Shown here: positions 23 through 33,224 of the stretch, piece after piece | Layout of the letters: every line of letters begins with the position of its first letter | Numbering within the stretch: position 1 is the first letter of the stretch | NCBI GenBank assembly: GCA_902761755.1 | Contig: CACWLP010000020.1 | Span: 21,660-85,659 of the forward strand | DNA: 64,000 nucleotides | Direction: 5' to 3' | Source of the DNA: an uncultured Eubacteriales bacterium | Lineage (GTDB): Bacteria; Bacillota; Clostridia; Christensenellales; Aristaeellaceae | Program-made: the position numbers and the translations under genes | Notes under the pieces: generated by a model | Told to the model about the DNA's origin: nothing | Seen by the model: the letters and a program-made list of their open reading frames with translations, nothing else | The model's database searches: none

Positions 23-324
23 GAGGATGTTGCATAAAGCCGATCTGCAACATCCTCTTTGTTTGCAGGGATATTGGTTCTCATAAAAGAATGAGCAGCA
101 GTGAATACCGGGAAACCGAAGAACCCCGGGGTGATTTGGAGGGGCCGCAGCCCCTCCAAGTATAATCCGCAGCAGCGAAGCGTGCGCTGCGAGGAGCATT
201 TTTGCTAAAGCAGAGCATGCCCTGCGGGAGCAACCGGGAGTCCCGCAGGGACGAGAGGAAAAGGCGTTTTATGTCGATCAAATGGAGGATCCATTTGATC
301 GAAGGGGCTGTGCAACAGCCCCTT
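23..324 (+). repeat. Hairpin-rich dispersed element, family A copy 1
   Basis: This gene-free stretch fills most of bases 1-338. It opens with a 12-bp hairpin (23-34 with 46-57, followed by TTTGTTT, terminator-like). Next come a small CTCAT/ATGAG hairpin, then the 62-nt core (136-197), then an ATCAAATGG/CCATTTGAT hairpin, and finally AAGGGGCTGT/ACAGCCCCTT (302-324). The same order recurs at 26102-26351, differing mainly by an extra stretch of about 45 nt here near 231-277. It ends 14 bases before the stop codon of the minus-strand c-di-GMP gene. Its upstream neighbour lies outside the window. No coding frame is credible. Confidence 0.85.
136..197 (+). ncRNA. 62-nt structured core, copy 1 (candidate RNA)
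   Basis: The core runs in order: 9-bp stem TTGGAGGGG/CCCCTCCAA closed by loop CCGCAG; 12-nt linker ending AATCCGCA; 19-nt hairpin GCAGCG/CGCTGC; then GAGGAGC. Copies at 26215-26276 and 33072-33133 have exactly the same segment lengths. Whether it acts as RNA or as a DNA palindrome is inference; the repetition and base pairing are seen directly. Confidence 0.55.
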
Positions 325-338
325 GTTTGCCGCGGGCG

Positions 339-3218
339 TCACACTTCCCGCAGCACCGTGATGTATTCCACACCCAGGCTTTCGTCCGTCACCCGGTCCG
401 TCTTCAGGTGCAGGCGGATGTGGCGGCCGTTGGGCAGATGCACCGTAAATTCCCGCTCGTAGGCGGCCGTGTGATCGGCGAAATAGGCGCCGATCTGATC
501 GTGGCTCAGCGTGTTCCCGTCCTCCACCCACTGGTAGATGGTGCCGTCGTTGAGAGCGCGGTCAAATTCGTCCCAGGGCAGGCCGCAGCGCTCCTCCAGC
601 CCGTGCACCACCAGCTCCAGCCGCAGCCCTTCCCGGCTGTGCCGGGTGAACACGATGGTATCCGAAGAGAAGCGGGCCAGAATGCGCATCTGGTTGCGCA
701 GCATCATGACCTCCGTCACGTCCACCACCACGCACTGCCAGCAGGTCGGGCCGTACAGATCGGTGAGCTGGCTCTGCTCCGCCACGTACAGGTATTCCCC
801 CTCCTTTGTGATCAGCCGGTAGGGGCGCACCCGCTTCTGCGTGCCGTCCACCAGCGCCTGGGCGTCGTGAAGCACGCGGCTGCGGTCCTCGGGATGGATC
901 ATGTTGATCAGCCGATTCTGGAACCGGGCGCGTATCTCCCGGGCGGTAAAGCCCGTCATGGTCAGGAAATTGCGGCTGATGTACTGGAATTCAAAGCCGT
1001 CCTCCTGGCTGCAGCGGAAATAGCCGCCGGGAATATCGGTATTCAGGTACTGCAATTCCGTCACGTCCTGGGAGGAGCCGTAAAACCGCACCCCCCGGAC
1101 GTCTTCCCCGATATAATACAGATGCACCTGGATCCAGACGATGACGCCGTTGGGCTTGTAAATGCGGAAGATGCCCCCCGCGCCGTTCATCCGATCCCTG
1201 GCGGCGGCCTTCATCATCAGGAAGAACCGCTCCCGGTCCTCGGGGTATACGTAATCCTGCATGCCGTGGATCCGCTGGTTCAGCATGTCCAGCTCGATCC
1301 CCACCATCAGATAAAACTGCTGATTGTAGCGGACGATATCCACCTGATCGTCCTTCCACACATAGAAGGCCACGGGGCCCAGGATGTTGTTGAGCATGGC
1401 GTCGCTGAACACGTTTTCATCCAGGAATTCCCGCACGTGCAGCTCCTGATTGGCCTTCACCTGGAAGCCGTGCAGATCGATCCTGGATTCGTCCGCGATC
1501 AGCGCCTCGAATTCCCCGGGGGCCACGGGCCGATGGAAGAAATAGCCCTGCATGTACCGGCAGCCCAGATCGGACAGGAACACCACCTGCTCCTGGCTTT
1601 CCACGCCCTCCACGATCACAGGGGTGGAGAGGGTCTTGGCCATGTTGATGACCGATTCCAGGATGCTGATGCCCTTGCGCTCCTCCTGCTGGCCCAGGCG
1701 AAGGAACTGGGCGTCCAGCTTGATCACGTCCACGTTCAGGGAGCTGAGCATGTTCAGGGAGGAGTATCCGCTGCCGAAATCGTCCATCAGCACCAGGAAG
1801 CCCATTTCCCGCAGGCGCTTCACCGTGCTCCGCACGGTTTCCGTATCTTCCACGTAGGCGGATTCTGTGATTTCGATCTTCAGCAGCCCGGCGTCCAGGC
1901 CGTACTTGTGCAGCAGGGACAGGAGGAACTCGGGCACGTCGATGACGAACAGGTCGATGGGCGACACGTTCACGGAGATGGGCACGGGCTTTCCGCCCCG
2001 GTCGATGAAATCCCGCAGCCATTTGCACACCGATTCCCAGATGAATTTATCCAGATTCGTCACGATGCCGTGGCGCTCCAGAATGGGCACGAACACCGCC
2101 GGCGGCACCCACCGCCCGTCCGACCGGCGCCACCGGGCCAAGGACTCCGCCCCCACGATCTTCCGGCTGGATACCCGGCACTGCGGCTGCAGCCAGAAGG
2201 AAATCTCGCCGTTTTCCAGGGCGTGCTGGAAATCCACCAGCAGGTGGTATTCCTCCATGGTTTTCCGTCGCAGCGTGCCGTCGTACACGCGGATGCGGGC
2301 GTGCACGTTGCCCTTGATCTCCTCCGCGGTCATGGCCGCATGGTTGAACACCGAGCCGATGGGCTCCGCATCGTCGTCCATCAGGCTGATGCCGAACAGG
2401 GGCGTAAAGCCCACCGTCTTGCTGACGGCCACCACCACGTCCTTGAGTTCCTGATACAGTGCATCGATCCGGGGACGGTCATAGGGCGTCATGAGGCAGA
2501 AATCATCCTGCCCGCGATACCCCGCCAGACCGTCCGTTTCCCGAGACGTTCTGAGCAGGATCTCGCCGAACCTGCGCAGCACAAACAGGCCGTTTTCCCG
2601 GCCGTGCCAGTCGGTAAACAGCTTGAAATGGTCAATGTCAATGGCGATCAGGCACCAGTTTTTCTTTTCCTGCCTCCGCTTCTGCTCCCCCAGGACGAAA
2701 AAGTCCCGCTCCCGGAGCAGGCCGGTCAGCTCGTCCCGCTGCAGGTTCGTTTTGCCTGTGGGCAGCGTTTCCAGGGGGATGACCCCGTCCTGGGAGGCAT
2801 CGTACACATAACACCGCGCCGTGCCCCGATTCATGCCGAAGCGCGGGCCGCCCACCACCACGCTTCGGGCGGCGCACCAGGCGCCGTCCACCGTTTCCAG
2901 GCGGATCTCCATCCAGATCACGCCGGGCATTTCGGCGTTTTCCAGCTGCGCGGCCAGGTTTTCCGGGGCCATCAGGCGGCGGTAGGTCTCCCGGTCGTCC
3001 GGGTGCACCATTTTTTCATAGGTATATTCAAACAGCGTGCTGTAGGCGCCCTCGGACGGCGTGATCCTGAACCGGCCCTCCGTGCGCGCCATGTTGCTGT
3101 ACCGGTCCGCCTGCACGTCAACAACCGCCATTTCATCAAATGACGTTTCGTCCAGGTATTCCAGCACCTGCGCCGCAGGCAGCTTTTCCAGCAGCAGCCT
3201 CAGCAGCTCCCTTTTCAT
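339..3218 (-). CDS. GGDEF-EAL-PAS cyclic-di-GMP signalling protein
   Basis: A soluble 959-residue protein with no membrane segment. It has an N-terminal PAS-like region (about 25-135), a GGDEF domain (about 165-320), an EAL domain (about 330-580), then two or three PAS-like sensor domains (about 600-959). The cyclase signature reads GQDDF instead of GGDEF, so cyclase activity is probably lost or weak. The phosphodiesterase residues look intact: E of ESLAR, N of NVSP, EITES, DDFG, IKLD, VEGVE and the final QGYFFHRP. It most likely hydrolyses c-di-GMP under control of its C-terminal PAS sensors, with the GGDEF domain possibly sensing GTP. The start has a purine-rich GGGGGGAA site upstream. It is a single-gene unit with its own promoter at 3378-3406. 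Confidence 0.93.
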   Translation of the reverse strand: MKRELLRLLLEKLPAAQVLEYLDETSFDEMAVVDVQADRYSNMARTEGRFRITPSEGAYSTLFEYTYEKMVHPDDRETYRRLMAPENLAAQLENAEMPGVIWMEIRLETVDGAWCAARSVVVGGPRFGMNRGTARCYVYDASQDGVIPLETLPTGKTNLQRDELTGLLRERDFFVLGEQKRRQEKKNWCLIAIDIDHFKLFTDWHGRENGLFVLRRFGEILLRTSRETDGLAGYRGQDDFCLMTPYDRPRIDALYQELKDVVVAVSKTVGFTPLFGISLMDDDAEPIGSVFNHAAMTAEEIKGNVHARIRVYDGTLRRKTMEEYHLLVDFQHALENGEISFWLQPQCRVSSRKIVGAESLARWRRSDGRWVPPAVFVPILERHGIVTNLDKFIWESVCKWLRDFIDRGGKPVPISVNVSPIDLFVIDVPEFLLSLLHKYGLDAGLLKIEITESAYVEDTETVRSTVKRLREMGFLVLMDDFGSGYSSLNMLSSLNVDVIKLDAQFLRLGQQEERKGISILESVINMAKTLSTPVIVEGVESQEQVVFLSDLGCRYMQGYFFHRPVAPGEFEALIADESRIDLHGFQVKANQELHVREFLDENVFSDAMLNNILGPVAFYVWKDDQVDIVRYNQQFYLMVGIELDMLNQRIHGMQDYVYPEDRERFFLMMKAAARDRMNGAGGIFRIYKPNGVIVWIQVHLYYIGEDVRGVRFYGSSQDVTELQYLNTDIPGGYFRCSQEDGFEFQYISRNFLTMTGFTAREIRARFQNRLINMIHPEDRSRVLHDAQALVDGTQKRVRPYRLITKEGEYLYVAEQSQLTDLYGPTCWQCVVVDVTEVMMLRNQMRILARFSSDTIVFTRHSREGLRLELVVHGLEERCGLPWDEFDRALNDGTIYQWVEDGNTLSHDQIGAYFADHTAAYEREFTVHLPNGRHIRLHLKTDRVTDESLGVEYITVLREV

Positions 3219-3377
3219 TCGATTCCCCCCGATGGCCTGAAAGACGCGCCCGGGCCTGAAAGCGATTTCCGGCGGGTCGCCCCGTAAAGATAAAAACCCT
3301 TCCGGTCTTCATCCTGATTCCGTTTTCAGCGTACCGTTTTTTTCAGCGCACGCGCTTTCGCTTCATGGGCTGGATTA

Positions 3378-3406
3378 ATTGTAACATAACTGTTACATAA
3401 TTGCAA
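3378..3406 (-). promoter_or_regulatory. Promoter of the c-di-GMP gene with operator-like palindrome
   Basis: Minus-strand TTGCAA (3401-3406), 17-bp spacer, TACAAT (3378-3383). The spacer carries a perfect inverted repeat, TGTAACA (3380-3386), 4 bp, TGTTACA (3391-3397). A dimeric regulator bound there would block RNA polymerase. The regulator is unknown. Confidence 0.6.
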
Positions 3407-3443
3407 GCAATTCTTTCCATTTAACCCGGATCCCGCCGGCGTA

Positions 3444-4595
3444 TCAGCGGATCACCCCGGCGCTGATCTTGAGGGCCAGCACCCTTTCCACGCTTTGATC
3501 GATCCGGTCCCAGGTAAGGCTCCCCGTATCCAGGGCGCGGAAAACCGCCTGGACGGCGGCGGGCAGATCCGCGGGCAGGAAAACCAGGTCCGCCCCCGCC
3601 TGCAGCGCCAGGACCGCGGCTTCCCCGGGTTTATAAAAGCTGACGATGCAGGGCATGCGCAGGGATTCGGTGATCACCACGCCGTCATAGCCCATTTCCT
3701 GCCGGAGGATGCCGATCATCCGGGGGGACAGGGAGGCGGGCACATCGTCCCCCAGGCTCCGGGCGACACCGTGGCTCATCATGATCATTTCCGCTCCCGC
3801 GTCGATCAGATCCGCATAAGGCAAAAATTCCGTCCGCCGCATATCCTCCAGGCTGCGGCGGTTCACCGCCGTGCCGTAATAATTCTTCTTGCCCAGGCTG
3901 CCGTCGTTGGGGAAGTGCCCGAAGCAGGGGATCACACCCTCTGCCCGCAGCCCCTCCGCAAAGCCCCCGGCCAGGAGGGATACCCGGGCGGGGTCCGCGC
4001 CGAAGGTGCGGCCCGATACGTCGCTCTCCGCCGCGATCTGCATATCCAGCGGCACGGCGAGATCCAGATTGATCCCCAGGGGCGCAAGGTAGCCGCCGAT
4101 GTACGCCCCCGCGCTCCGGGCTTCTTCCGCATCTCCGGGTAGTTCCTCCGGCCCCGGCGCATAAGGCCGGCCCAGCTTGTTGGCCACCCGGGACAGGCTG
4201 CCCCCTGCTTCGTGCACGCCGATGAACAGGGGCTGCATCCCCGCCGCCCGGGCCTGGGCCTGCAGGGAAGCGGTCAGGGCCGCCAGCTGCGTTTCCGAGG
4301 CAATGTTCTGCCCGTAGAGCGCCACGCCCCCCACGGGATACCGGGAAAAAACGTTGCCCTCCGGCAGCGCGAGGGTGTACTTTTCCCCCGTCAGCATTTC
4401 CGGCGTCACCAGAAACAGCTGGCAGACCTTTTCCTCCTCCGTCATCAGCCGCATCAGCGCCCGGGCCTGGCGACGGGGATCGGGGCGCAGGACGCTGTCA
4501 TCCTCCACCACCACAAAGCTGTCCTCCTCCCCCCGGGAGCAGAACGGCAGCCCCAGCAGCGCCAGGGCGAGCACCAGGCACAAAAAACGGCGCAC
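3444..4595 (-). CDS. Degenerate glycoside hydrolase family 3 (NagZ-like) secreted protein
   Basis: 383 residues from a GTG start placed 8 bp after AAGGAGG; the frame continues upstream to 4646 without such a site. The N-terminus MRRFLCLVLALALLGLP is a signal peptide. The rest follows the GH3 beta-N-acetylhexosaminidase TIM barrel (NVFSRYPVGG, HEAGGSLSRV, AEMIMMSHG, GYDGVVITESLRM, QAGADLVFL). Two catalytic motifs are altered. The usual KHFPGHGD loop reads GHFPNDGS at about residue 221, losing the dyad histidine. The nucleophile motif TDDLxM reads TESLRM at about 306, replacing Asp with Glu. It may be a binding protein or have changed chemistry. Confidence 0.85.
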   Translation of the reverse strand: MRRFLCLVLALALLGLPFCSRGEEDSFVVVEDDSVLRPDPRRQARALMRLMTEEEKVCQLFLVTPEMLTGEKYTLALPEGNVFSRYPVGGVALYGQNIASETQLAALTASLQAQARAAGMQPLFIGVHEAGGSLSRVANKLGRPYAPGPEELPGDAEEARSAGAYIGGYLAPLGINLDLAVPLDMQIAAESDVSGRTFGADPARVSLLAGGFAEGLRAEGVIPCFGHFPNDGSLGKKNYYGTAVNRRSLEDMRRTEFLPYADLIDAGAEMIMMSHGVARSLGDDVPASLSPRMIGILRQEMGYDGVVITESLRMPCIVSFYKPGEAAVLALQAGADLVFLPADLPAAVQAVFRALDTGSLTWDRIDQSVERVLALKISAGVIR

Positions 4596-4653
4596 GGCGG
4601 CAACCTCCTTTTTCCGTATTGTATCACACCCGGAAAAAACGCGCAACGTAAGA

Positions 4654-4701
4654 CGGACGGAACGCCGGAAAAGCGCTTGTCCCCGCCTGCGGAATCATGT
4701 A
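4654..4701 (+). repeat. 48-bp direct repeat, copy 1 (duplicated promoter segment)
   Basis: Identical over 48 bp to 4996-5043. It contains the same TTGTCC -35 hexamer as the pepC promoter, but the -10 position here reads TAATAT because the sequence diverges just after the repeat. Confidence 0.9.
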
Positions 4702-4995
4702 ATATCAGAAATATATCATGTCATGTAATATCAGAAATATATCATGTATATAGAGATATATCATAAATAGAGATATATCATGTAATATCAGAGATATAGA
4801 AGAAACAACAGAAAGGCTTCCCCTTGAGGGGAAGCTGTCACCGAAGGTGACTGATGAGGTGGCCACCTCATCCGAGCCGCTTCGCGGCCCACCTTCCCCT
4901 CCAGGGGAAGGCTTTTCGCAAGATCTTTCGCTTGTCCCCGAAAGCAAGGCTTCCCGGGAACGCTGTTCACGCTTTTTCCCATTCATGCGTGCTCC
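4702..4995. mobile_element. Insert between 48-bp repeats: AT-rich tandem repeats plus MITE-like palindrome
   Basis: Bases from about 4696 to 4800 are AT-rich tandem repeats; a CATGTAATATCAG unit recurs at 4696, 4722 and 4779. They are followed by an imperfect inverted repeat with arms 4813-4862 and 4863-4914. Each arm contains smaller hairpins: CTTCCCCT/AGGGGAAG at 4818-4835 and 4893-4910, GTCACC/GGTGAC at 4837-4851, GCCGC/GCGGC at 4876-4888. There is no transposase frame. From memory, similar CTTCCCCT-type palindromes are scattered in many Clostridia genomes; whether this is the same family needs a search. The 492-bp gap between the two flanking genes contains nothing else apart from the pepC promoter. 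Confidence 0.6.
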
Positions 4996-5043
4996 CGGAC
5001 GGAACGCCGGAAAAGCGCTTGTCCCCGCCTGCGGAATCATGTA
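4996..5043 (+). repeat. 48-bp direct repeat, copy 2 (carries the working promoter)
   Basis: Perfect match to 4654-4701. This copy runs into TATAAT at 5042-5047 and so forms the functional version of the promoter. Confidence 0.9.
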
Positions 5044-5047
5044 TAAT
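5019..5047 (+). promoter_or_regulatory. Promoter of the pepC-card1 operon
   Basis: TTGTCC (5019-5024), 17-bp spacer, TATAAT (5042-5047), 40 bp ahead of the pepC start. It is placed to transcribe the five closely spaced genes to 10910. Confidence 0.75.
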
Positions 5048-5087
5048 GGTACGGGAAACCATTCACAAAAGAAAGGAAGCCGTTCTT

Positions 5088-6422
5088 ATGAATAAAACGC
5101 CGATCACCCAGGCAAGCCTGGACGCCTGGTCCCACGCTTACCGCACGTCCGACGCCCGGCGCATCGCCACCCTGGCCCTGAGCAAGCAGGACGTGATGGA
5201 CGCCTGCTATTCCCCCGTGCCCCAGCTGAACCGCAGGCGCAAATTCTCCCTGGAGATCGAAACGCTGCCCGTCACCAATCAGGAACACAGCGGCCGCTGC
5301 TGGCTCTTCGCCGCGCTGAACGTGCTGCGCGAGCGCATCGCCAAAACGCTGAACCTCAAGAATTTTGAGCTGTCCCAGAGCTACATGGCCTTCTGGGACA
5401 AATTCGAGCGCGCCAATTATTTCCTGGAGGCCATGGTGGAAACCGCCTCCCTGCCCACCGACGACCGCACGGTCTCCTTCCTGCTGCAGACCGGGGTGCA
5501 CGACGGCGGCCAGTGGGATATGTTCGCCAACATCGTAAGCAAATACGGCGTGGTGCCCAAGGACGTGTTCGGGGAAACCTACCAGTCCGCCAACACCCGG
5601 AATATGAACCACCTGCTGAACCGCAGCCTGAAGGCCTGCGCGGTGAAGCTGCGGGCCCTCGTTGCCCGGAACGCCTCCCCGGAGGAGATCCGCGGGGAGA
5701 AGGAAAGGATGCTGGGGGATATCTACGGCTTCCTCTGCTCCTGCTACGCCGAGCCGCCCCGGGCTTTTGATTTCGAATATACCGACAAGGACGGCGTTTA
5801 TCACATCGAAAAGGGCATGACGCCCCGGGCCTTCACCGAAAAATACGTGGGCGGCCTGCTGAACGACACCGTCAGCATCATCAACGCCCCCACCCGGGAC
5901 AAGCCATACCACAAAACCTATACCGTGAAATTCCTGGGCAACGTGGTGGGCGGCCGCCCTGTAAAGCACCTGAACCTGACCATGGACGAATTCAAGCAGT
6001 GCGTGATCCGCCAGCTGCAAGCGGGCAAGGTGGTCTGGTTCGGCAGCGACGTGGGCAAGTTCGGCGACCGGGAAGCGGGCATCTGGGACGACGGGAGCTT
6101 CAACGCGCCGCTGCTCACCGGGCTGGACCTGGAGATTTCCAAAGAAGACAGCCTGGATTACGGCTTTGCCGCCATGAACCACGCCATGGTGATCACCGGG
6201 GTGAACCTGGACGAGGGCCGGCCCACCCGCTGGAAGATCGAAAACAGCTGGGGCGACGCCCACGGGGACAAGGGATACTACATCTGCTCGGACAGCTGGT
6301 TCGACCAGTATGTGTTCCAGGCGGCGGTGGAAAAGGAATACCTTTGCGATCTGGCCGCCTTCGCCGAGCAGGAGCCCATCGTCCTGGAGCCCTGGGATCC
6401 CATGGGCACCCTGGCGGAATAA
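5088..6422 (+). CDS. pepC: Aminopeptidase C (bleomycin hydrolase family, C1B)
   Basis: 444 residues, the normal size for this cytosolic cysteine aminopeptidase, which removes N-terminal residues from peptides and works as a hexamer. The papain-type triad is intact: Cys in SGRCWLFAALN (about residue 70), His in AMNHAMVITG (about 365) and Asn in ENSWGD (about 386). The chosen ATG follows AAAGGAAG. An in-frame extension upstream is rejected because it covers the promoter and the 48-bp repeat. First gene of a tightly packed plus-strand operon; the next start lies 10 bp after the stop. Confidence 0.96.
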   Translation: MNKTPITQASLDAWSHAYRTSDARRIATLALSKQDVMDACYSPVPQLNRRRKFSLEIETLPVTNQEHSGRCWLFAALNVLRERIAKTLNLKNFELSQSYMAFWDKFERANYFLEAMVETASLPTDDRTVSFLLQTGVHDGGQWDMFANIVSKYGVVPKDVFGETYQSANTRNMNHLLNRSLKACAVKLRALVARNASPEEIRGEKERMLGDIYGFLCSCYAEPPRAFDFEYTDKDGVYHIEKGMTPRAFTEKYVGGLLNDTVSIINAPTRDKPYHKTYTVKFLGNVVGGRPVKHLNLTMDEFKQCVIRQLQAGKVVWFGSDVGKFGDREAGIWDDGSFNAPLLTGLDLEISKEDSLDYGFAAMNHAMVITGVNLDEGRPTRWKIENSWGDAHGDKGYYICSDSWFDQYVFQAAVEKEYLCDLAAFAEQEPIVLEPWDPMGTLAE

Positions 6423-6432
6423 GGAGCGAACC

Positions 6433-6816
6433 GTGAGAATCGAGCATGCCGCCCTGTACGTTTTCGACCCGGAGGGCGCACGGGATTTCTTCGTCCGCTT
6501 CTTCGGCGGAAAGGCGAACGCGGGGTATCACAACAAAACCACCGATTTCCGTTCGTACTTCCTCTCCTTTGACGGCGGCGCGCGCCTGGAGATCATGACC
6601 CGCCCGAGCCTCAGGGCCTCCGATCCCGGCGCGCTGCGCACGGGCTATGCCCATCTGGCCTTCAGCGCCGGCAGCCGGGCGCAGGTGGACGCCCTGACGG
6701 AACGGCTGCGCCAGGCGGGTTATCCCGTTCTCTCCGGCCCCCGGGTCACCGGCGACGGCTATTACGAAAGCTGCGTGGCGGGCTTTGAGGGCCATCCCAT
6801 CGAAATCACCGAATAA
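6433..6816 (+). CDS. VOC (glyoxalase/bleomycin-resistance fold) protein
   Basis: 127 residues from a GTG start; the ribosome-binding site TAAGGAG overlaps the pepC stop codon. A single vicinal-oxygen-chelate module: it opens RIEHAALYVFDPEGARDFFVRFF and ends FEGHPIEITE, with the typical beta-alpha-beta-beta-beta pattern. The substrate cannot be told: lyase, dioxygenase-like or drug-binding roles all occur in this family. It is flanked by pepC and a MATE exporter. Confidence 0.88.
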   Translation: MRIEHAALYVFDPEGARDFFVRFFGGKANAGYHNKTTDFRSYFLSFDGGARLEIMTRPSLRASDPGALRTGYAHLAFSAGSRAQVDALTERLRQAGYPVLSGPRVTGDGYYESCVAGFEGHPIEITE

Positions 6817-6834
6817 TCGGCACCGGAGAAAAAA

Positions 6835-22243: not shown

Positions 22244-22244
22244 A

Positions 22245-25372: not shown

Positions 25373-25480
25373 GGCAAACCTCCCGTTTTCCTCGCCGCAC
25401 GGCGTGATCCTATTATATCACACCTTGGCCCGTTTTGCGTAAACATTTTGTAAAGACGGATCCGGTAAGACGGATTGTGC

Positions 25481-25509: not shown

Positions 25510-25596
25510 AAGTTTTACTCACCCACCGGAAAAAGAAAACGCGGGTGATTCCAGCGCTATTTCCCCACTTTTCTGGCGAAAGAAGGCGAAGAAACC

Positions 25597-26082
25597 ATGA
25601 TGTACGGGAAAACCAGGCCCCGGGTGTCCATGCAGCGGGGCGATTTGAAACTGCAGCGCAACGTACTGATCCTCGTTTGCATCGCGCTGTTCATCGCGGT
25701 GGCCGTGCTGACGTACGTGGTCATCCGGAATTCCGTTTACCGCCGGAACGCCCAGCTCCAGTTCCATCAGCGGGCGATCAGCGCCGCCGCCACCGCGGTG
25801 GACGAGGTGAGCCGCCTCAACGGCTCCACCACGTCCTCCACCGCGGCGCAGCTTGCCCGGGTGCGCCAGCAGGTGTATTACATGGAGCAGCTCAATCAGA
25901 TCAGCATCGCCCTGTCCGGGGAGGGCGGCCGGCTGGTGCCCGCGGAGCAGTTCGAGGCGCTGGATAAGGATCTGGACGAGTTTGAGGCCCTGGCCCAGCG
26001 ATCCACCATTTCCACCCTGGATACCCGCGCCGATCTGCTGGAGCATCTGAGCGCAGTGCAATCCGTGCTGGAGCGGCGCTGA
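25597..26082 (+). CDS. Small membrane protein with coiled-coil tail, function unknown
   Basis: 161 residues. A basic N-terminus (about 1-20), one strong membrane helix (NVLILVCIALFIAVAVLTYVVI, about 22-44), then an extracytoplasmic helical tail rich in Gln, Ala and Leu (QFHQRAISAAATAVDEVSRL, VRQQVYYMEQLNQISIAL). No family is recognised. The layout resembles FtsL/DivIC-like or other bitopic proteins but no specific match can be claimed. A dispersed family A element begins 20 bp after its stop. Confidence 0.8.
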   Translation: MMYGKTRPRVSMQRGDLKLQRNVLILVCIALFIAVAVLTYVVIRNSVYRRNAQLQFHQRAISAAATAVDEVSRLNGSTTSSTAAQLARVRQQVYYMEQLNQISIALSGEGGRLVPAEQFEALDKDLDEFEALAQRSTISTLDTRADLLEHLSAVQSVLERR

Positions 26083-26101
26083 AAAAACCGGTACGCAGAA
26101 A

Positions 26102-26351
26102 GAGGATGTTGCGTAAAGCCAATCTGCAATATCCTCTTTGTTTACAGGGATATTGGTTCTCATAGACGAATGAGCAACAGTGAATACCAGGAAATCAAAG
26201 AATCCCGGGGTGGTTTGGAGGGGCCGCAGCCCCTCCAAGCGGAATCCGCAGCAGCGACCTGTGCGCTGCGAGGAGCATTTTTGCGAAGCAGAGCATGCCC
26301 TGCGAGAGCAATGGAGGATCCATTTGATCGAAGGGGCTGTGCAACAGCCCC
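26102..26351 (+). repeat. Hairpin-rich dispersed element, family A copy 2
   Basis: It aligns over nearly its whole length with 23-324, lacking about 45 nt of that copy. It begins with GAGGATGTTGC paired to GCAATATCCTC, where one C of copy 1 is T here, giving a G-T wobble that keeps the stem. The core lies at 26215-26276. It ends with AAGGGGCTGT/ACAGCCCC and a T-run that reaches the stop codon of the minus-strand DUF3343 gene. It lies between converging genes. Confidence 0.85.
26215..26276 (+). ncRNA. 62-nt structured core, copy 2 (candidate RNA)
   Basis: Same order and lengths as 136-197. Differences from that copy fall in the linker (GCGG instead of GTAT before AATCCGCA) and in the loop of the second hairpin (ACCTGTG instead of AAGCGTG). 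All paired bases are kept. Confidence 0.55.
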
Positions 26352-26357
26352 CCTTTT

Positions 26358-26630
26358 TTATAATCTGGATACAACCGGTCTTTCCCATCCGCTGCGGTCC
26401 ACCCGGTAGAAGCCGATCAGGTTCCCGGGGCGGCTGCGCTGATACGCGTCCAGCACCGCCTGGGCGTCCCGCAGGTCGAACCGGACGGACAGCCCGCAAC
26501 CGACGCTCACGTCCCGGGGGGTGGAAACCACCTGGCTGTCGATGCCCGCCCGGCGCAGCGCCGCGTCGAAGCGCATCACCTGCTGGCGGCTGCGGAAGGC
26601 GGCGATGCCGAATGTTTCATGGCTGGTCAT
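26358..26630 (-). CDS. DUF3343 protein (putative Se/S carrier)
   Basis: 90 residues. The compact domain contains the conserved cysteine motif VGCGLSVRF (about residue 45) expected for DUF3343, a family often encoded beside cysteine-desulfurase-like genes and suggested to carry sulfur or selenium. GAGGAGGGG precedes the ATG. It is divergent from the desulfurase-family gene 81 bp away. The adjacent repeat's T-run touches its stop codon. Confidence 0.85.
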   Translation of the reverse strand: MTSHETFGIAAFRSRQQVMRFDAALRRAGIDSQVVSTPRDVSVGCGLSVRFDLRDAQAVLDAYQRSRPGNLIGFYRVDRSGWERPVVSRL

Positions 26631-26711
26631 GCTTTTCCCCTCCTCCTCATACAGTGTATGAGCGGGAACGGCCGCGGGTGCCTTTCCGCGCCGACGAAGG
26701 AGGAGCAGCCC

Positions 26712-27842
26712 ATGATCTATCTGGACAACGCGGCCACCACCTGGCCCAAACCCCCGGAGGTGATCCGGGCAGTCAGCGGCGTGATGGAAAAAATCGGCGG
26801 CAACCCGGGCCGGGCGGGCCACCGCTTCGCCCTGGCCGGCGGGCGCATTCTGGAAAACTGCCGGGAATTGGCGGCGCATCTGGCGGGCGTTTCCGCCCCG
26901 GAGCAGGTGATTTTCTGCCTCAACTGCACCGACGCCCTGAACACCGCCATCCGGGGCACCCTCCACGAGGGGGACGAGGTGCTGGTCTCCCACGCGGAGC
27001 ACAACGCGGTAATGCGTCCCCTGATGGGCTATCACGACGCGGGAAAGATCACGGTGCGCATCCTGCCCCCGGAGCAGGACGGGCTGCTGTCCCCCGATAC
27101 GGTGCTCTCCGCCATTGGCCCGAAAACGGCCCTGATGGTCCTCAGCCACGCCAGCAACGTCACCGGCATCCTCCAGCCGGCCCGGGCCATCGCCGACGTC
27201 TGCCGCAGCCGGGGCGTTCCCCTGCTGCTGGACGCCGCCCAGACCGCCGGCACCGAGGACCTTTCCGCCGTCGGGGCGGACATGATCGCCATGCCGGGGC
27301 ACAAGGGGCTGCTGGGGCCCATGGGCACGGGGCTGCTGTGCCTGGGAAGGGGCATGCTGCCCCGCCCCTTCCGGGAAGGCGGCACGGGATCGGCCTCCGA
27401 AAGCATGCGCCAGCCCGATATGCTCCCCGACCGGCTGGAAAGCGGCACGGCGAACCTGCCGGGCATCGCGGGGCTGTGCCAGGGGATCAAATTCGTGCTG
27501 CGCCACCGCACGGCCATGGCGGATTACGAGCAGGCGCTGCGCCGCCGGCTGTGGGAGGGGCTTCAAAACATCCCCGGCGTCGCGGTGCTGGGCGGGGACG
27601 AAAGCGTGCCCCACGCCGGAGTGCTCAGCTTCAACATCCGGGATCTGGACAGCGGCCGCGTGGCGGACGAACTGGACAGAAGCGGCATCGCCGTCCGGGG
27701 CGGGCTGCACTGCGCTCCCTCCGTTCACGCCTGGCTGGGCACCACCCAGACCGGCGCGGTCCGGTCCAGCCTGGGGCCCTTCAATACGGAAGCCGACGTG
27801 GACGCCCTGCTGTCCGCTGCGGAAAAAATCGCAAAAGGCTGA
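26712..27842 (+). CDS. Cysteine desulfurase family PLP aminotransferase
   Basis: 376 residues. It starts MIYLDNAATTWPKPPEV, the standard opening of the family. The PLP lysine is in PGHKGLLGPMGTG, after LLLDAAQTAGTEDL. The catalytic cysteine is in RGGLHCAPSVHAWLGT, class II type. It removes sulfur (or selenium) from cysteine to form a persulfide. No IscU or SufU partner is nearby; the DUF3343 protein encoded back to back is the obvious acceptor candidate. GAAGGAGGAGCAGCCC precedes the start. In-frame upstream sequence to 26619 lies in the shared promoter region and is excluded. Confidence 0.93.
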   Translation: MIYLDNAATTWPKPPEVIRAVSGVMEKIGGNPGRAGHRFALAGGRILENCRELAAHLAGVSAPEQVIFCLNCTDALNTAIRGTLHEGDEVLVSHAEHNAVMRPLMGYHDAGKITVRILPPEQDGLLSPDTVLSAIGPKTALMVLSHASNVTGILQPARAIADVCRSRGVPLLLDAAQTAGTEDLSAVGADMIAMPGHKGLLGPMGTGLLCLGRGMLPRPFREGGTGSASESMRQPDMLPDRLESGTANLPGIAGLCQGIKFVLRHRTAMADYEQALRRRLWEGLQNIPGVAVLGGDESVPHAGVLSFNIRDLDSGRVADELDRSGIAVRGGLHCAPSVHAWLGTTQTGAVRSSLGPFNTEADVDALLSAAEKIAKG

Positions 27843-27904
27843 CCGTATAAGCGCCTTCCCCGCCGGGCATACTGATCCCATCAGCCAGAAGGGGGGGTAC
27901 GCCC

Positions 27905-28450
27905 ATGCCAGCAGCGGAAAACCGGCTCTGGGACGCTTTCGCGGCGGAGTGCGCCGCGTACATGAAATATACCTTCTACGCCCAGGCGGCGCGGAAGGAA
28001 GGCTATCAGCAGATCGCGGACATCTTCGAGGAAACCGCCAAGAACGAGCAGGCCCACGCCCGGCTGTGGCTCACCGCCCTGGGCCGGCTTCCCGACGGCA
28101 CTCAGCCGGGCGATACCGAAAAATGCCTCCGCGCCGCCATTCAGGGGGAGCATACCGAATGGACGGAGCAGTATCCCGAATGCGCCCGGGAGGCAGGCGA
28201 AGCCGGGGACGCCGCGCTGCAGCGCCAGTTCGAGGGCGTGGGGGCCGTGGAGGCCTCCCACGAGCAGCGGTTCCAGACCCTGCTGGACCGGCTGCTTACC
28301 GGCACCGTATTCGCCCGGCGGGAAGGGGACGTGCCCGTGTGGCGCTGCCGGTTCTGCGGCCATCTGCACACCGGCATGGATGCCCCTTCCCCCTGCCCCG
28401 TGTGCCGGTATCCCCAGCTCTATTTTGAAATCAACGCCGTCAATTACTGA
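27905..28450 (+). CDS. rbr: Rubrerythrin
   Basis: 181 residues. An N-terminal four-helix di-iron domain carries two ligand motifs (ETAKNEQAHARLW and VEASHEQRF), and a C-terminal rubredoxin-like knuckle carries CRFCG and CPVCRYPQLYF. It reduces hydrogen peroxide using electrons from NAD(P)H via redox partners, as is typical of strict anaerobes. It follows the desulfurase gene by 62 bp and a strong AAGGGGGG site precedes the ATG. Confidence 0.95.
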   Translation: MPAAENRLWDAFAAECAAYMKYTFYAQAARKEGYQQIADIFEETAKNEQAHARLWLTALGRLPDGTQPGDTEKCLRAAIQGEHTEWTEQYPECAREAGEAGDAALQRQFEGVGAVEASHEQRFQTLLDRLLTGTVFARREGDVPVWRCRFCGHLHTGMDAPSPCPVCRYPQLYFEINAVNY

Positions 28451-28487
28451 CGCCGGGCCCGCAAAGTATTTCAAAACTTTTACGTTT

Positions 28488-28518
28488 CTGTGTCGGTTCT
28501 TGTTGCAATCCGACACAG
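28488..28518. promoter_or_regulatory. 9-bp inverted repeat over the MoxR promoter
   Basis: CTGTGTCGG (28488-28496) and CCGACACAG (28510-28518) enclose 13 bp that include the -35 hexamer. It could be an operator, or a weak terminator of the rubrerythrin transcript since ATTTTGTT follows. Sequence alone does not decide. Confidence 0.5.
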
Positions 28519-28531
28519 ATTTTGTTATACT
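28503..28531 (+). promoter_or_regulatory. Promoter of the MoxR-DUF58-transglutaminase operon
   Basis: TTGCAA (28503-28508), 17-bp spacer, TATACT (28526-28531), about 70 bp before the start codon. Confidence 0.7.
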
Positions 28532-28603
28532 GTTCTGTGGCCGGGACAAGCCTTCCGGCCCGAGAAAAAGATTTTTCTGTTCCATGAAAGGAGCGTACGC
28601 CTT

Positions 28604-29563
28604 ATGCAGTCCACCCCCGCCCAGCCCAGGCCGCTGGTTTATGCCCTGCAGCAGAATATCCGGCAAGTGATCGTCGGCAAGGACGAGGCCATCGAGCTCA
28701 TGCTCATCGCCCTGATCTGCCGGGGCCACGTGCTGATCGAGGACGTGCCGGGAGTGGGCAAGACCACCATGGCCGCCGCCCTGGCCAAATCCCTGCAGTG
28801 CTCCTTCAAGCGCATCCAGTTCACCCCGGACGTGACGCCCTCGGACGTGACGGGCTTCACCATGGTGAACATCCAGACCGGGGAAATGGAATTCAAGCCC
28901 GGCGCGGTGATGAGCCAGATCGTGCTGGCGGATGAGATCAACCGCACCTCCCCCAAGACCCAGTCTTCCCTGCTGGAAGTGATGGAGGAGGGCCAGGTGA
29001 CCGTGGACGGCGTCACCCATACGCTGCCCCGGCCCTTCATGGTGCTGGCCACCCAGAACCCGGTGGATTTCGTGGGCACCTATCCCCTGCCCGAAGCGCA
29101 GATGGACCGGTTTTTCCTGCGCATTTCCGTGGGCTATCCCACGGTGGAGGAGGAAATCGACGTGCTGGAGCGTTACTCCGGCCAGACCACGCCTATCCAG
29201 TCCCTCCAGCCCGTGTGCGGCGCCCAGGAGATCATCGCCATGCAGGAGCAGCTGGGCACGGTGTACGCCAGCCGGGAAGCCCGCAGCTACGTGGCCACCA
29301 TCACGGCCCAGACCCGGGATCACGCCGCGCTGCAGCTGGGCGCGTCCCCCCGGGGCTCCATCGCGCTGCTGCGGGCGGCCCAGGCCTGCGCCCTGCTGTC
29401 CGGGCGGGATTACGTGCTGCCCGACGATATCCGCCGCATGGCCCTGCCGGTGCTGTCCCACCGGCTGATCCTCACCCCGGAAGCCCGGATGAAGGGCGTA
29501 TCGGCCCAGCAGGTTTTGTCCCAGCTGATCGAAACCGTGCCGGTGCCCACCGGCCGGTCATGA
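28604..29563 (+). CDS. MoxR-family AAA+ ATPase
   Basis: 319 residues. Walker A EDVPGVGKTTMAAAL, Walker B VLADEINRTSPKTQSSLLEVM, sensor LATQNPVDF, and a C-terminal helical lid (DYVLPDDIRRMALPVLSHRL). MoxR ATPases act as chaperones that activate partner proteins with VWA or DUF58 domains, and the next gene encodes a DUF58 protein. The ATG at 28604 follows GAAAGGAG; a longer frame from 28490 includes the promoter and is rejected. Its stop overlaps the DUF58 start. Confidence 0.94.
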   Translation: MQSTPAQPRPLVYALQQNIRQVIVGKDEAIELMLIALICRGHVLIEDVPGVGKTTMAAALAKSLQCSFKRIQFTPDVTPSDVTGFTMVNIQTGEMEFKPGAVMSQIVLADEINRTSPKTQSSLLEVMEEGQVTVDGVTHTLPRPFMVLATQNPVDFVGTYPLPEAQMDRFFLRISVGYPTVEEEIDVLERYSGQTTPIQSLQPVCGAQEIIAMQEQLGTVYASREARSYVATITAQTRDHAALQLGASPRGSIALLRAAQACALLSGRDYVLPDDIRRMALPVLSHRLILTPEARMKGVSAQQVLSQLIETVPVPTGRS

Positions 29564-30711
29564 CAGGCCGGGGCGCGGCGGCCCTCGCCGCCCTGGCGAC
29601 CAGCGCGGTGTGCGCGCTGTCGCTGGGCAATCTGCTGTATCTGTATATCGCGCTGCTGCTTCTGCTGCTGCTGCTTTACGGGCTGGTCAGCTGCCTGTGG
29701 GCCCGGCGCACCGCCGAATGCCGCCAGTTTTTAAGCGCGTCCTCCGTTCCCCGGGGCGGCAGCGCCATGCTGACCGCCCAGGTTTATCATGCCTGTCCGC
29801 TGCCGGTAGCGGCCCTGCGGGGGGAATACCTGTGGGGAAATCAAACGGAGGAATGCGAGTTTTCCGCCGCGCCCTTCAAGCCGGTCAGCCGCCGGGTGAG
29901 CCTGAGCGCCCGGCACGTGGGCTGCTTTGACGCCGGGATGCGCGTCCTTTGGGTGCAGGATCTGTTCGGCCTGTTCCGCATGAAAAAAACGCCGGCCTCC
30001 GGGGACGCGGTGCTTTCCGTGCTGCCCCGGCCTTTTGATATCGAAAAGCCGCGCTTCACCCTGGGGGACGACGGCAGCGCCGCCCTGGGCCGCACCCAGG
30101 AGGATTACAACGCGCCGGAGGACGTGCGCGCCTACCGCCCCGGCGACGCCATGAAGCGCATCCACTGGAAGCTGAGCTCCCGGAAACGGGAGCTGCTGGT
30201 GCGCCGGTTCGAGACTCCCGCCCCGCCGGACACCCTGATCCTCCTGGACTGCGATACCCCCCGGGGCGGCGAAGGGGTGCCCGAAGGCAAGGAAAGCCTG
30301 AGGGACGCCCTGTGCGAAACCGCGGTGGCCGTGGCCCGGATGCAGATGGCGGACGGCAGTCCCGTCCGGCTGCCCATTTACGGCGCCCGGGCCAACGAAT
30401 TCGCCTCCGACCAGGCCGAGGGCCTGACGCTGCTGCAGGAAATGCTGGCGGCCCAGCCCTTCGGCGGCGGGGAGGATTTTTCCCGGGTGCTGAACCTGGA
30501 ACTGCGCCGGATGCGGCGCACCGGCGCCGCGGTCATCATCACCACCCGCCTGGACGCCCAGATCGTGGAGGGGGTCAGCCACATCCGCCGCATGGGCCCC
30601 AGCGCCCGGCTGTATCTGGTCACCTATACCCCGGACGATCCCGCCTGCCAGCCCTACGTATCCCGGCTGCAGCATCATCTGGTGGAGGTCTGCTATGTCA
30701 CGCCCGCGTGA
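29560..30711 (+). CDS. DUF58 membrane protein (VWA-like)
   Basis: 383 residues. Two close N-terminal membrane helices (about 4-45) are followed by a cytoplasmic region with the DUF58 signature EDVRAYRPGDAMKRIHWKLSSRKRELLVRRFE and a VWA-like fold (TLILLDCDTP, AAVIITTRLDAQ). It is the expected partner of the MoxR ATPase and overlaps it by 4 bp (ATGA). The next gene starts inside its last 17 bases. Confidence 0.92.
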   Translation: MTGRGAAALAALATSAVCALSLGNLLYLYIALLLLLLLLYGLVSCLWARRTAECRQFLSASSVPRGGSAMLTAQVYHACPLPVAALRGEYLWGNQTEECEFSAAPFKPVSRRVSLSARHVGCFDAGMRVLWVQDLFGLFRMKKTPASGDAVLSVLPRPFDIEKPRFTLGDDGSAALGRTQEDYNAPEDVRAYRPGDAMKRIHWKLSSRKRELLVRRFETPAPPDTLILLDCDTPRGGEGVPEGKESLRDALCETAVAVARMQMADGSPVRLPIYGARANEFASDQAEGLTLLQEMLAAQPFGGGEDFSRVLNLELRRMRRTGAAVIITTRLDAQIVEGVSHIRRMGPSARLYLVTYTPDDPACQPYVSRLQHHLVEVCYVTPA

Positions 30712-32968
30712 ATGGGATTGGAAAGAATCCGTCACGGTTTATCTGACGGCTTTGCTGCTGGCCTTGGGGATGAGCCTGCTCTTTTACAAGGCCCTCTTCC
30801 CCCAGCAGGCCGTCTGGCCGTCCGTGGCCTGGTGCGCCCTTTTTTGCCTGATTCTTCATGTTTTTTTCTCGCTGCGCTTCCGCTTCAAATGGCTCATCGG
30901 CGTGGCGGCGTTCGCCGCGCCTTTGGTCTGGCTGGCGCTGGACGGCGGCCCGCTGTACCCCGTGATCCAGGGGGTCAAGGCGGCGTCCCTGTCCTTCTCC
31001 ACGGTGCCGGAAGCCGCCGCGCCCTATGCGTCCCAGCTGCGCTGGGCGATGTGCCTGCTGTTCTCCCTGCTGGCTTCCTCCCTGGCCTGGGACCGGACGC
31101 TGCCCCTGGCCCTGTTCTCCGTCGTCGCGGTGACCGTGCTCTCCTTTGTGCTGGGCGCCCGGGCGCAGCTGCTGCTCTATGTGCTGCCCGCCGCGGCGGG
31201 GCTGCTTTTGCTGCTGGCGGGCAACGAAGGCAAGCGTCCCGTTGTGGTGATCGCAGCCTGCGCCCTGGCGGGCGGCGCGTTCCTGCTGCTGCCTCCCGCG
31301 CCCCGGACCGTGCAGCCCCTGGAAAAGGCCGCCACCGACCTGCGCCAGTTCGTGGAGGATTATCTGCTGTTCAACGAATTCCGCAGCACCTTTTCCCTGA
31401 CCACCGAGGGCTACCAGCCCCTGGATAACCGCCTGGGCGGCAAGGCCCAGCCCTCCCACCGGGAAGTAATGGAAGTGACGGGGGACCGCACCGTGTTGCT
31501 GCGGGGCCGGGCGTATGACGATTACTCCGGCCTCAACTGGTACGATACCCTGGCGTCCCGGCGCTTCCTGTATGCCTCCCCCCGGTTTACCGCCCAGCGG
31601 GACGAACTGTTCGATCTGGTGCGGCCCCTGGCCGGCGATCTGCCCCAGGCGGCCACCCTGTCCGTCCGGATGCTGGGGGACGCCACCACCACCCTGTTCA
31701 CCCCCTGCCGCACGCTGAGCATGCAGATGGAAAGCGACCGGATGGTGCTGTATTACAACCTGGCCTCCGAGCGCTTCATCACCCGCAACCTGGCCCTGGA
31801 GGACCGCTACTCCCTCACTTATCTGCCCTTTGCCCCGGGCCAGCCCGAAACAAGCGCCGCGATCGCAGCCTGCGCGGACAGGAACGACCCCCATTACGAT
31901 CAGATCGCCGGGCAGTACCTGGAAATCCCCCGCCACATCCAGCAGGAAATCTACGATATCGCCGCCAAAGCCACCGAAAACGCCCAGACGCCCTATGAAA
32001 AGGCCCTGGCTATCCAGCGCTATCTGCAGACGAATTACCGCTATAATCTGAACGTGGCCACCCCGCCGGAGGGAGTGGATTTCGCCGCGTGGTTCCTCAT
32101 CGGGGAGAAGGAAGGCTACTGCACCTATTTCGCCACCGCCATGACGCTGCTGTGCCGCATTTCCGGCATCCCCGCCCGGTACGTGACGGGCTACCTGGCC
32201 GTGCCGGACGAAAGCGGGAAAGCGGTGGTGACGGGAGAAAACGCCCACGCCTGGACGGAGATTTACCTGAACGGCTTCGGCTGGCTGGATATCGACGCCA
32301 CGCCCCGGGGCGACAACCGCCCGGGCAGCGACAGCGGCGAGGACGCGCCGGATCATCAGCCCTCTCCGCCGCCGTCCCCGTCGCCCTCCCCGGCGCCCAG
32401 CCCCACGCCGCCGCCCTCCGCGCCCCAGGAGACCCCCACCCCGGAACCGCCGCCCTCCGCCCCGCCGGACAGCGACAGCCCGGACGCGCCTACGCCCACG
32501 CCGGAGCCGCCCGCCCCCGGGGAAACCCCCGCGCCGGAGCCGGATCGGAAGGACCCGGACACGCCCGGAAAGCAGCCGCCCTTCCCCTGGTGGATCCTTT
32601 TGATCCTGCTTTTCGCCGCGCTGCTGGCGCTGCGCCTGTATTTCACCGAGCCCCTCCGCCGCGCCGGGAAGCACCCGGAAAAGGCGGCGGCGATCCTCTT
32701 CGGGGCCATCGGCGCCCTGCTGGCCGCCCGTCGGCTGCGCCGCGGGCCCGCCGAAACGCTGCACGCATTCGCCGCCCGGGCGGATATCCCCCTCCGGGCA
32801 AAGAGCCTGCCTGAGATCACGCCCCTGGCGGACAGCTACGCCGCCCAGCTTTACGGCCGCCATCCCGCCGACCCCGCGCCCTTCGCAGATGCGTACCGCG
32901 CCCTGCGGAGCCGGGCCTCCCGCTGGACGCGGTTCCGCCTTGCGGTCAAACGGATATTCGGCAGATGA
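30695..32968 (+). CDS. Membrane transglutaminase-like protein (TgpA type)
   Basis: 757 residues. A cluster of N-terminal membrane helices (about 12-200) precedes an outside transglutaminase-like domain with an intact triad: Cys in GYCTYFATAM (about 474), His in ENAHAWTEIY (about 517) and Asp in LDIDATPRG (about 533). A proline-rich linker (about 549-630), one more helix (PFPWWILLILLFAALLALRL) and a C-terminal DUF4129-like tail follow. The MoxR-DUF58-transglutaminase trio is a common but poorly understood envelope module. A family B element starts 46 bp after the stop. Confidence 0.92.
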   Translation: MSRPREWDWKESVTVYLTALLLALGMSLLFYKALFPQQAVWPSVAWCALFCLILHVFFSLRFRFKWLIGVAAFAAPLVWLALDGGPLYPVIQGVKAASLSFSTVPEAAAPYASQLRWAMCLLFSLLASSLAWDRTLPLALFSVVAVTVLSFVLGARAQLLLYVLPAAAGLLLLLAGNEGKRPVVVIAACALAGGAFLLLPPAPRTVQPLEKAATDLRQFVEDYLLFNEFRSTFSLTTEGYQPLDNRLGGKAQPSHREVMEVTGDRTVLLRGRAYDDYSGLNWYDTLASRRFLYASPRFTAQRDELFDLVRPLAGDLPQAATLSVRMLGDATTTLFTPCRTLSMQMESDRMVLYYNLASERFITRNLALEDRYSLTYLPFAPGQPETSAAIAACADRNDPHYDQIAGQYLEIPRHIQQEIYDIAAKATENAQTPYEKALAIQRYLQTNYRYNLNVATPPEGVDFAAWFLIGEKEGYCTYFATAMTLLCRISGIPARYVTGYLAVPDESGKAVVTGENAHAWTEIYLNGFGWLDIDATPRGDNRPGSDSGEDAPDHQPSPPPSPSPSPAPSPTPPPSAPQETPTPEPPPSAPPDSDSPDAPTPTPEPPAPGETPAPEPDRKDPDTPGKQPPFPWWILLILLFAALLALRLYFTEPLRRAGKHPEKAAAILFGAIGALLAARRLRRGPAETLHAFAARADIPLRAKSLPEITPLADSYAAQLYGRHPADPAPFADAYRALRSRASRWTRFRLAVKRIFGR

Positions 32969-33013
32969 CCCCGATGGCCGCGGATGCGGAAAACCTGCTT
33001 CTATACAACAATC

Positions 33014-33224
33014 GCTCCCGGGCGGCAATCCGCCCGGGAGTCAGACTGTCGACAAAATACCCCTGGGATGCATCGAAGGGCCGCAGTCCTTCGATTTTAA
33101 ATCCGCAGGACCGGCTTTGCCGGTCCGAGGAGCGGTCAATCGAAAGACTGCTTTAGCTGGCTTTCGATGGCAGGGTGTCGACTTTGTCGACACCCTGGCT
33201 CCCGGGCGGCAATCCGCCCGGGAG
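33014..33224 (+). repeat. Hairpin-rich element, family B
   Basis: It occupies most of the 305-bp gene-free stretch 32969-33273 between converging genes. Each end is the same 27-bp hairpin sequence (33014-33040 and 33198-33224: CTCCCGGGCGG, AAT, CCGCCCGGGAG inside it). Within lie the 62-nt core (33072-33133), an 8-bp hairpin (ATCGAAAG at 33139-33146 with CTTTCGAT at 33161-33168) and a 12-bp hairpin CAGGGTGTCGAC/GTCGACACCCTG (33171-33196). Outside the core it shares almost no primary sequence with family A. Confidence 0.8.
33072..33133 (+). ncRNA. 62-nt structured core, copy 3 (candidate RNA)
   Basis: Stem 1 is ATCGAAGGG/TCCTTCGAT with the same CCGCAG loop; the linker has the same 12-nt length ending AATCCGCA; hairpin 2 is GGACCGGC/GCCGGTCC in the same 19-nt span; GAGGAGC follows. 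Both stems differ in sequence from family A but keep pairing, which is covariation. Confidence 0.6.

What the first reader, a model, noticed from the sequence alone, without database searches (positions are those of the whole stretch)
136..33133. A 62-nt core recurs three times with fixed geometry and covarying stems
Copies at 136-197, 26215-26276 and 33072-33133 each have a 9-bp stem with loop CCGCAG, a 12-nt linker ending AATCCGCA, a 19-nt hairpin, then GAGGAGC. Between families A and B both stems are rewritten yet still pair, while loop, linker and tail stay constant. That is the mark of a conserved structure under selection or a mobile palindromic element with its own recognition. Neighbouring hairpins differ, so the core is the shared unit. 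I do not recognise it as a known RNA class.
Basis: seen in the sequence. Interest (0 to 1): 0.8.

Follow-up and report, generated by a model that had tools for sequence, protein, structure and literature searches.

The report
Terminator-duplicating mini-transposon with structured core
The repeated hairpin unit is part of a small mobile DNA element of uncultured Clostridia that appears to jump into the hairpins that end genes, copying the whole hairpin as it lands, and its own hairpin-rich interior keeps its base pairing while its sequence drifts.

Summary
In detail: three 62-nt cores lie where stated, with rewritten but pairing stems, and no Rfam family matches. The core is part of a ~250-nt non-autonomous transposable element with six hairpins and ~15-bp terminal inverted repeats. 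Window copy 3 is an internally deleted copy (33042-33197) between two identical 27-bp terminator-like hairpins. Of 75 copies tested, 31 show such a locus-specific repeat (control 4 of 886). IS1182-family insertion sequences in the same genus have similar ends and the same whole-hairpin duplication at 4 of 5 loci with both flanks. I read the element as a MITE moved by an IS1182-type transposase that targets terminator hairpins and duplicates them; the related IS1272 is reported to delete them. Partner copies were confirmed in only 2 of 29 genus genomes. Stem covariation is strong (218 double-change cells, shuffled 72). A covariance model finds the core in 29 of 29 genus genomes and 133 of 250 family genomes. 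Whether the core acts as RNA or DNA is unresolved. Copies 1 and 2 are a related subfamily without hairpin duplication. Transposition is inferred, not shown.

The parts
136..197 (+). 62-nt core, copy 1 (family A)
   Evidence: model hit 124-209, 63.3 bits
23..322 (+). family A unit, copy 1 (300 nt), from hairpin 23-57 to hairpin 304-322
   Evidence: ends shared with other family A copies of this genome
26215..26276 (+). 62-nt core, copy 2 (family A)
   Evidence: model hit 26203-26298, 63.3 bits
26102..26351 (+). family A unit, copy 2 (250 nt)
   Evidence: no model hit beside the end of the orthologous downstream gene in 12 of 12 relatives with flank held
33072..33133 (+). 62-nt core, copy 3 (family B)
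   Evidence: model hit 33060-33155, 75.1 bits
33042..33197 (+). whole element, copy 3 (156 bp, internally deleted relative to ~250-bp copies)
33042..33056 (+). 5' terminal inverted repeat CAGACTGTCGACAAA
33183..33197 (-). 3' terminal inverted repeat, CAGGGTGTCGACAAA on the - strand, part of a terminal hairpin
33014..33040 (+). first copy of the duplicated target, a 27-bp terminator-like hairpin
   Evidence: 27 of 27 identical to 33198-33224
33198..33224 (+). second copy of the duplicated target hairpin
30695..32968 (+). gene running towards copy 3 (transglutaminase-core domain)
33274..34269 (-). ORF converging on copy 3
   Evidence: no Pfam match
25597..26082 (+). ORF running towards copy 2
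   Evidence: no Pfam match
26358..27881 (-). ORF converging on copy 2 (Pfam Se_S_carrier match at residues 426-480)
   Evidence: its end region matches all 29 genus genomes' DNA
339..3218 (-). PAS/GGDEF/EAL gene ending beside copy 1

Best explanation
The core belongs to a MITE: a non-autonomous transposable element of about 250 bp that an IS1182-family transposase moves in trans. SHOWN: the element has ~15-bp terminal inverted repeats similar to those of IS1182-family elements of the same genus. Many copies are bracketed by two copies of a hairpin that differs from locus to locus, with A-rich sequence before and T-rich sequence after, as in a bidirectional intrinsic terminator. IS1182 elements of the genus show the same whole-hairpin duplication. 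[quoted passage not shown] 2017 (PMC5678879). INFERRED: the landing is mild for the host, because each convergent gene still meets a hairpin with a U-tract on the far side, so the element is read as an untranslated 3' extension. SHOWN: the interior folds into six hairpins whose stems covary. INFERRED: the interior is kept for its structure, either as DNA hairpins used in transposition or as RNA.
For: Repeat beside the ends in 31 of 75 tested sequences at score 14 or more and 25 of 75 at 20 or more, against 4 of 886 and 0 of 886 mismatched pairs (the 75 include the chance match L010, and for L063 the partner of the repeat is the element's own P5 rather than an outer flank). 31 of 44 copies with both ends found have a repeat of 14-38 bp (median 25, 31 different sequences, 21 perfect), A-rich before and T-rich after. 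End motif CAGNNTGTCGANAAA: 44 in G000, 56 in G002, 31 in G021, control 0-1 in each. IS elements of 1478-1588 bp with a DUF772 + DDE_Tnp_1_6 protein (NCBIfam IS1182, 420 and 431 bits, cut-off 270) and perfect hairpin duplications of 22, 33, 32 and 25 bp at 4 independent loci. Sites without the element: 2 relatives with a single hairpin, read by eye; 12 of 12 relatives at copy 2. The same duplication in 4 of 14 loci outside the genus, in g6, g12 and g32. Covariation. IS1182 elements are reported as over-represented between convergent genes (PMC9208149, passages).
Against: The IS1182 partner was confirmed by ends and flanks in only 2 of 29 genus genomes (G020, G027) although all 29 carry the element; none was found in the window's own genome (PF05598 0; PF13751 0). 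The genomes are incomplete and high-copy repeats break assembly, but this is a weak co-distribution. IS and MITE ends differ at 1-4 of 15 positions. One of 5 IS loci with both flanks (L150) has different hairpins on its two sides. Family A copies, including window copies 1 and 2, show no locus-specific duplication, and 44 of 75 tested sequences lack one. Outside the genus 10 of 14 loci showed none, among them 0 of 4 in other families. In several genomes the end motif is no more frequent than its control (e.g. G025 1 against 3, G016 0 against 5). No transposition event was observed.
Confidence: 0.8

Rival explanations
1. It is mainly a structured RNA (sRNA or 3'-UTR element) spread by ordinary duplication and recombination; the flanking hairpins are its own terminators.
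For: Six hairpins with covariation and conserved unpaired motifs; somewhat more G-U than A-C mispairs, 40 against 21 cells, p = 0.02 if cells were independent; folding z-score -9.83 on the element strand.
Against: The flanking hairpins differ between loci yet match each other within a locus; ends similar to those of an IS that lacks the core; the G-U excess shrinks to 31 against 20 distinct-context events, p = 0.16; the opposite strand folds almost as well, z -8.20; no orientation bias to the T-tract (10 T-richer, 16 A-richer, 5 equal).
Confidence: 0.1
2. A REP/BIME system moved by a RAYT (Y1 transposase).
For: A RAYT-like Y1 protein exists in the own genome (L052), and a marginal model hit (18.7 bits, E 0.004-0.017) lies between its 3' end and the next gene; intergenic palindromes at gene ends.
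Against: Y1_Tnp matches in 6 of 18 genomes with the exact core pattern and 4 of 11 without; 19 of 29 genomes carry the element without a Y1_Tnp match; no model hit in 8 other Y1_Tnp loci; Y1 enzymes are not expected to duplicate targets (recalled).
Confidence: 0.03
3. Hairpins were duplicated by replication slippage or template switching at terminators, and the element is passive filler.
For: Hairpins are slippage hot spots (recalled); one copy (L228) has its second hairpin as the reverse complement of the first.
Against: Duplications abut terminal inverted repeats; the same arrangement surrounds IS1182 elements that encode a transposase.
Confidence: 0.04

Closest known systems
IS1272 / TnSha1 (IS1182 family): Wan et al. 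2017 PMC5678879 (abstract, passages, part 1 of 2 of the Discussion) and Furi et al. 2016 PMC4923244 (passages)
   Same: IS1182-family transposase; 16-bp terminal inverted repeats (IS1272); targets are inverted repeats or terminator hairpins, and no primary-sequence consensus was found for TnSha1
   Different: They delete or replace the target hairpin and leave no duplication; here the whole hairpin is duplicated, which Wan et al. draw only as a hypothetical pathway
ISPse1 (IS1182 family), PMC3281130 (passages)
   Same: same transposase family, 16-bp inverted repeats
   Different: listed with a 4-bp duplication
Bacterial MITEs and the pneumococcal BOX / RUP / SPRITE repeats (review PMC10969869, passages)
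   Same: short, structured, many copies; SPRITE is named for its terminator-like sequence
   Different: no whole-terminator duplication in the passages seen; their sequences were not compared with this core
REP/BIME with RAYT (PMC2817692, search listing only)
   Same: intergenic palindromes in many copies
   Different: different enzyme; a target duplication is present here

Membership tests
MITE of an IS1182-family element | no transposase gene, short length | tested here: met
   44 copies with both ends, 134-358 bp; 34 of them 225-262 bp
MITE of an IS1182-family element | terminal inverted repeats shared with an autonomous element | tested here: met
   similar, not identical: MITE CAGACTGTCGACAAA, IS ends differ at 1-4 of 15 positions
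MITE of an IS1182-family element | same target and same target duplication as the autonomous element | tested here: met
   hairpin duplications in 31 of 44 MITE copies and 4 of 5 IS loci
MITE of an IS1182-family element | autonomous element in the same genome | tested here: inconclusive
   none found in G000, which is 73% complete; G020 and G027 carry both the IS and the element
MITE of an IS1182-family element | mobilisation in trans | not testable with these tools
   needs an assay
IS1182 family (the partner) | transposase matches the curated IS1182 model above cut-off | tested here: met
   NF033551, 420 and 431 bits, cut-off 270
Rfam structured RNA | hit above a family's gathering score | tested here: not met
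   0 hits in the window and in 4 loci; the weak matches are all below gathering score
REP/RAYT system | RAYT gene associated with the repeats | tested here: not met
   6 of 18 against 4 of 11 genomes; model hit in 1 of 9 Y1_Tnp loci, marginal

The most novel reading that the evidence does not exclude
A family-wide structured element (P1-P2-P3 core with conserved junctions plus further hairpins) uses an IS1182-type transposase that reads target shape rather than sequence and duplicates whole terminators, and the core is itself a functional structured nucleic acid: either DNA hairpins recognised by the same shape-reading transposase, or an RNA carried into gene 3' ends between a stop codon and a re-created terminator.
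Probability: 0.4. Interest if true: 0.8.

Novelty: new variant of a known kind. Interest (0 to 1): 0.62.

Why it matters
Terminator targeting by IS1182 elements is known, but the cases I read about destroy the hairpin. A lineage that duplicates it would show that one transposase family can have both outcomes, would give natural evidence for a pathway so far only drawn, and would explain how elements reach tens of copies per genome at gene ends with little harm. The covarying core, without an Rfam entry and found in 30 of 50 sampled genera of one family of uncultured Clostridia, is a structured element whose level of action, DNA or RNA, can be tested directly.

Tried and rejected
RAYT/REP system: Y1_Tnp not associated with the repeat. 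Known RNA: five Rfam scans. Five other DUF772 transposase loci of the genus (L133-L137): no such ends or flanking duplications found; L138-L144 were checked for the ends only. Flanking-gene orientation by longest ORF: unreliable in a G+C-rich genome, not used. First hairpin test in other genera: my fuzzy pattern took wrong positions; redone from model coordinates. A fuzzy core pattern used proved far too permissive (it fires in 9 of 10 loci, IS and RAYT loci included); it flagged L245, and the covariance model does not, so I use the model result. RNA against DNA by wobble asymmetry: inconclusive. Paper searches on hairpin- or terminator-targeting insertion sequences and MITEs: in the listings and the papers opened I saw no report of whole-terminator duplication. 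The library holds open-licence papers only; one review asked for was not held.
Full report
OBSERVATION. The three cores are in the window exactly as described. In the window's genome (G000, 2.2 Mb, 46 contigs, 73% complete) the pattern CCGCAGN{4,14}AATCCGCA occurs 25 times, reversed control 0; one of the 25 (L010) showed no stems on reading. A stricter pattern occurs in 18 of 100 genomes searched, own included, all in the same genus.

ANATOMY. Of 91 distinct copies held, 44 had both ends located (134-358 bp), and 34 of these lie between 225 and 262 bp. Their alignment runs from CAGACTGTCGACAAA to about TTTTTCGACACNCTG with hairpins P1 (the CCGCAG loop), P3 (closed by TTCC), a long bulged P4, P5, and P6 at the 3' end; P2 is only weakly recovered there but is clear on the core alignment (88.8% of cells paired with MAFFT columns; 97% when read from the stem base). 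Of 67 base pairs found on both strands, 39 show two or more Watson-Crick types, each in at least 2 sequences. On 60 distinct cores 95.0% of cells pair (shuffled 80.1%), with 218 double-change cells (shuffled 72.2, sd 9.1) and covariation score 0.427 (shuffled 0.164), 0 of 500 shuffles each; sliding the partner by 1-3 columns drops pairing to 35.5-59.6%; the number of pairs with a double change (12 against 10.2) and of further pair types (27 against 27.7) do not exceed the shuffles. On 51 distinct P1+P2 sequences, P1 is 96% and P2 97% paired, shuffled means 76% and 63%. In the predicted fold GGAU before P1 pairs with AUCC of the linker, which may explain why the linker is conserved (inference).

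MOBILITY. Just outside the ends lie two copies of a hairpin that differs from locus to locus. Of 75 tested sequences (the chance match L010 included), 31 have such a repeat at score 14 or more and 25 at 20 or more; mismatched pairs of flanks give 4 and 0 of 886. For one of the 31, L063, the repeat's partner is the element's own P5. Of the 44 copies with both ends, 31 have a repeat of 14-38 bp, median 25, all 31 different in sequence and 21 perfect; 12 scored none (in most of these a hairpin stands on one side, by eye) and 1 had too little flank. The 8 nt before hold a mean of 4.5 A and the 8 nt after 4.3 T, with no preferred orientation (10 T-richer, 16 A-richer, 5 equal). Window copy 3 is one of these: hairpins at 33014-33040 and 33198-33224 around an internally deleted element at 33042-33197. 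Empty sites: of 7 relatives printed at the gene before copy 3, G009 and G019 show, by eye, one terminator hairpin and no element (in G009 a small extra ORF intervenes), and G017 has an element fragment (model hit 29.4 bits). At the gene after copy 2, none of 12 relatives with flank held has a model hit beside the gene end (13 of the 28 relatives matched were fetched, one without flank).

PARTNER. PF05598 (DUF772) matches 12 of 29 genus genomes. Two of those loci, L131 (G020) and L132 (G027), carry a transposase matching the IS1182 model (420 and 431 bits, cut-off 270) and are bracketed by perfect hairpin duplications. A scan of genome contigs gave 22 loci, of which L145 and L146 repeat the flanks of L132 and L131. 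Of 5 independent full-length loci with both flanks, 4 have perfect duplications of 22, 33, 32 and 25 bp and L150 has different hairpins on its two sides; L148 and L151 end just beyond the 3' end. IS ends differ from CAGACTGTCGACAAA at 1-4 of 15 positions; the closest are CAGACCGTCGACAAA and CAGACTGTCAACAAA. None of the 9 IS1182 loci has a model hit, so the core is not part of the IS.

SPREAD. A covariance model of P1-P3 (its E-values are rough) matches 29 of 29 genus genomes at E <= 0.001 with 2-76 copies (in G028 only to 1e-4); 133 of 250 family genomes and 30 of 50 genera (19 of the 133 are of this genus); and at E <= 1e-5 14 of 297 genomes drawn from the order, 8 of 125 genera, 7 of the 14 in other families (f23, f10, f33; the last two weak). 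Of 24 such loci with enough flank, 9 have a hairpin repeat at score 12 or more (control 6 of 552, maximum 13): 5 of 10 in the genus and 4 of 14 outside it (g6 1, g12 2, g32 1; 0 of 4 in other families); 14 more loci had too little flank. In the g32 copy (L194) the ends differ from CAGACTGTC while the duplication is kept. Of the 22 titles, 20 are Clostridia or Clostridiales MAGs, several with rumen or gut in the title; one is a Candidatus Ventricola and one an Actinomycetales bin.

COPIES 1 AND 2. They belong to a G000 subfamily (A; 17 cores among the fetched loci and window) with its own end hairpins and no per-locus duplication. In the 13 of 17 copies whose two ends my pattern found, the 14 nt before hold a mean of 7.2 A and the 14 nt after 6.0 T (the window is 19% A and 18% T). 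That would fit replacement of a terminator hairpin, as reported for IS1272, but no empty site proves it.

RNA OR DNA. On pairs common to both strands there are 40 G-T and 21 A-C cells (p = 0.02 if independent), or 31 and 20 distinct-context events (p = 0.16). A 256-nt stretch of L044 that covers most of an intact element and 26 nt of its flank folds far better than shuffles on both strands (z -9.83 and -8.20). I leave this open.

LITERATURE. IS1272/TnSha1 target inverted repeats or terminators and delete them (PMC5678879: abstract, passages, part 1 of 2 of the Discussion; PMC4923244: passages). Whole-hairpin duplication is drawn in PMC5678879 only as pathway b. An IS1182 member with a 4-bp duplication is tabulated in PMC3281130 (passages). 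PMC9208149 (passages) reports IS1182 among families over-represented between convergent genes. My recollection that IS1182 duplications of 0-60 bp are tabulated elsewhere comes from no call.

Noticed in passing
L109 33-1515 (G028): An element with the same kind of ends, and hairpins with the stem GGCG(T/C)CGTATGACGCCG on both sides, that carries an APH-family phosphotransferase gene: possible cargo carried by the same ends.
   Followed up: partly
L228 (G240): The second copy of the duplicated hairpin is the reverse complement of the first (the loop is flipped). Of the 31 genus repeats tested, 29 fit the direct orientation better and 2 the inverted one by 1-2 letters only.
   Followed up: partly
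L211 and L212 (viral contigs): Two contigs called viral carry the core, L211 twice; it may be host sequence in the contig or an element on a phage.
   Followed up: no
L052 1388-1483 (G000:C17): A marginal, P1-like model hit (18.7 bits) between the 3' end of a RAYT-like Y1 transposase gene (1441-1989, - strand; name recalled) and the next gene.
   Followed up: partly
L149 3949 and 3990: One IS1182 copy has its 3' terminal repeat twice in tandem.
   Followed up: no
L131 1380-1420: The IS1182 reading frame of this copy is interrupted by a stop near its start, compared with L132.
   Followed up: no
G000 contigs C13, C17 and C20, starts: Contigs begin inside family B copies, so assembly breaks on this repeat and copy numbers are probably lower bounds.
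   Followed up: no
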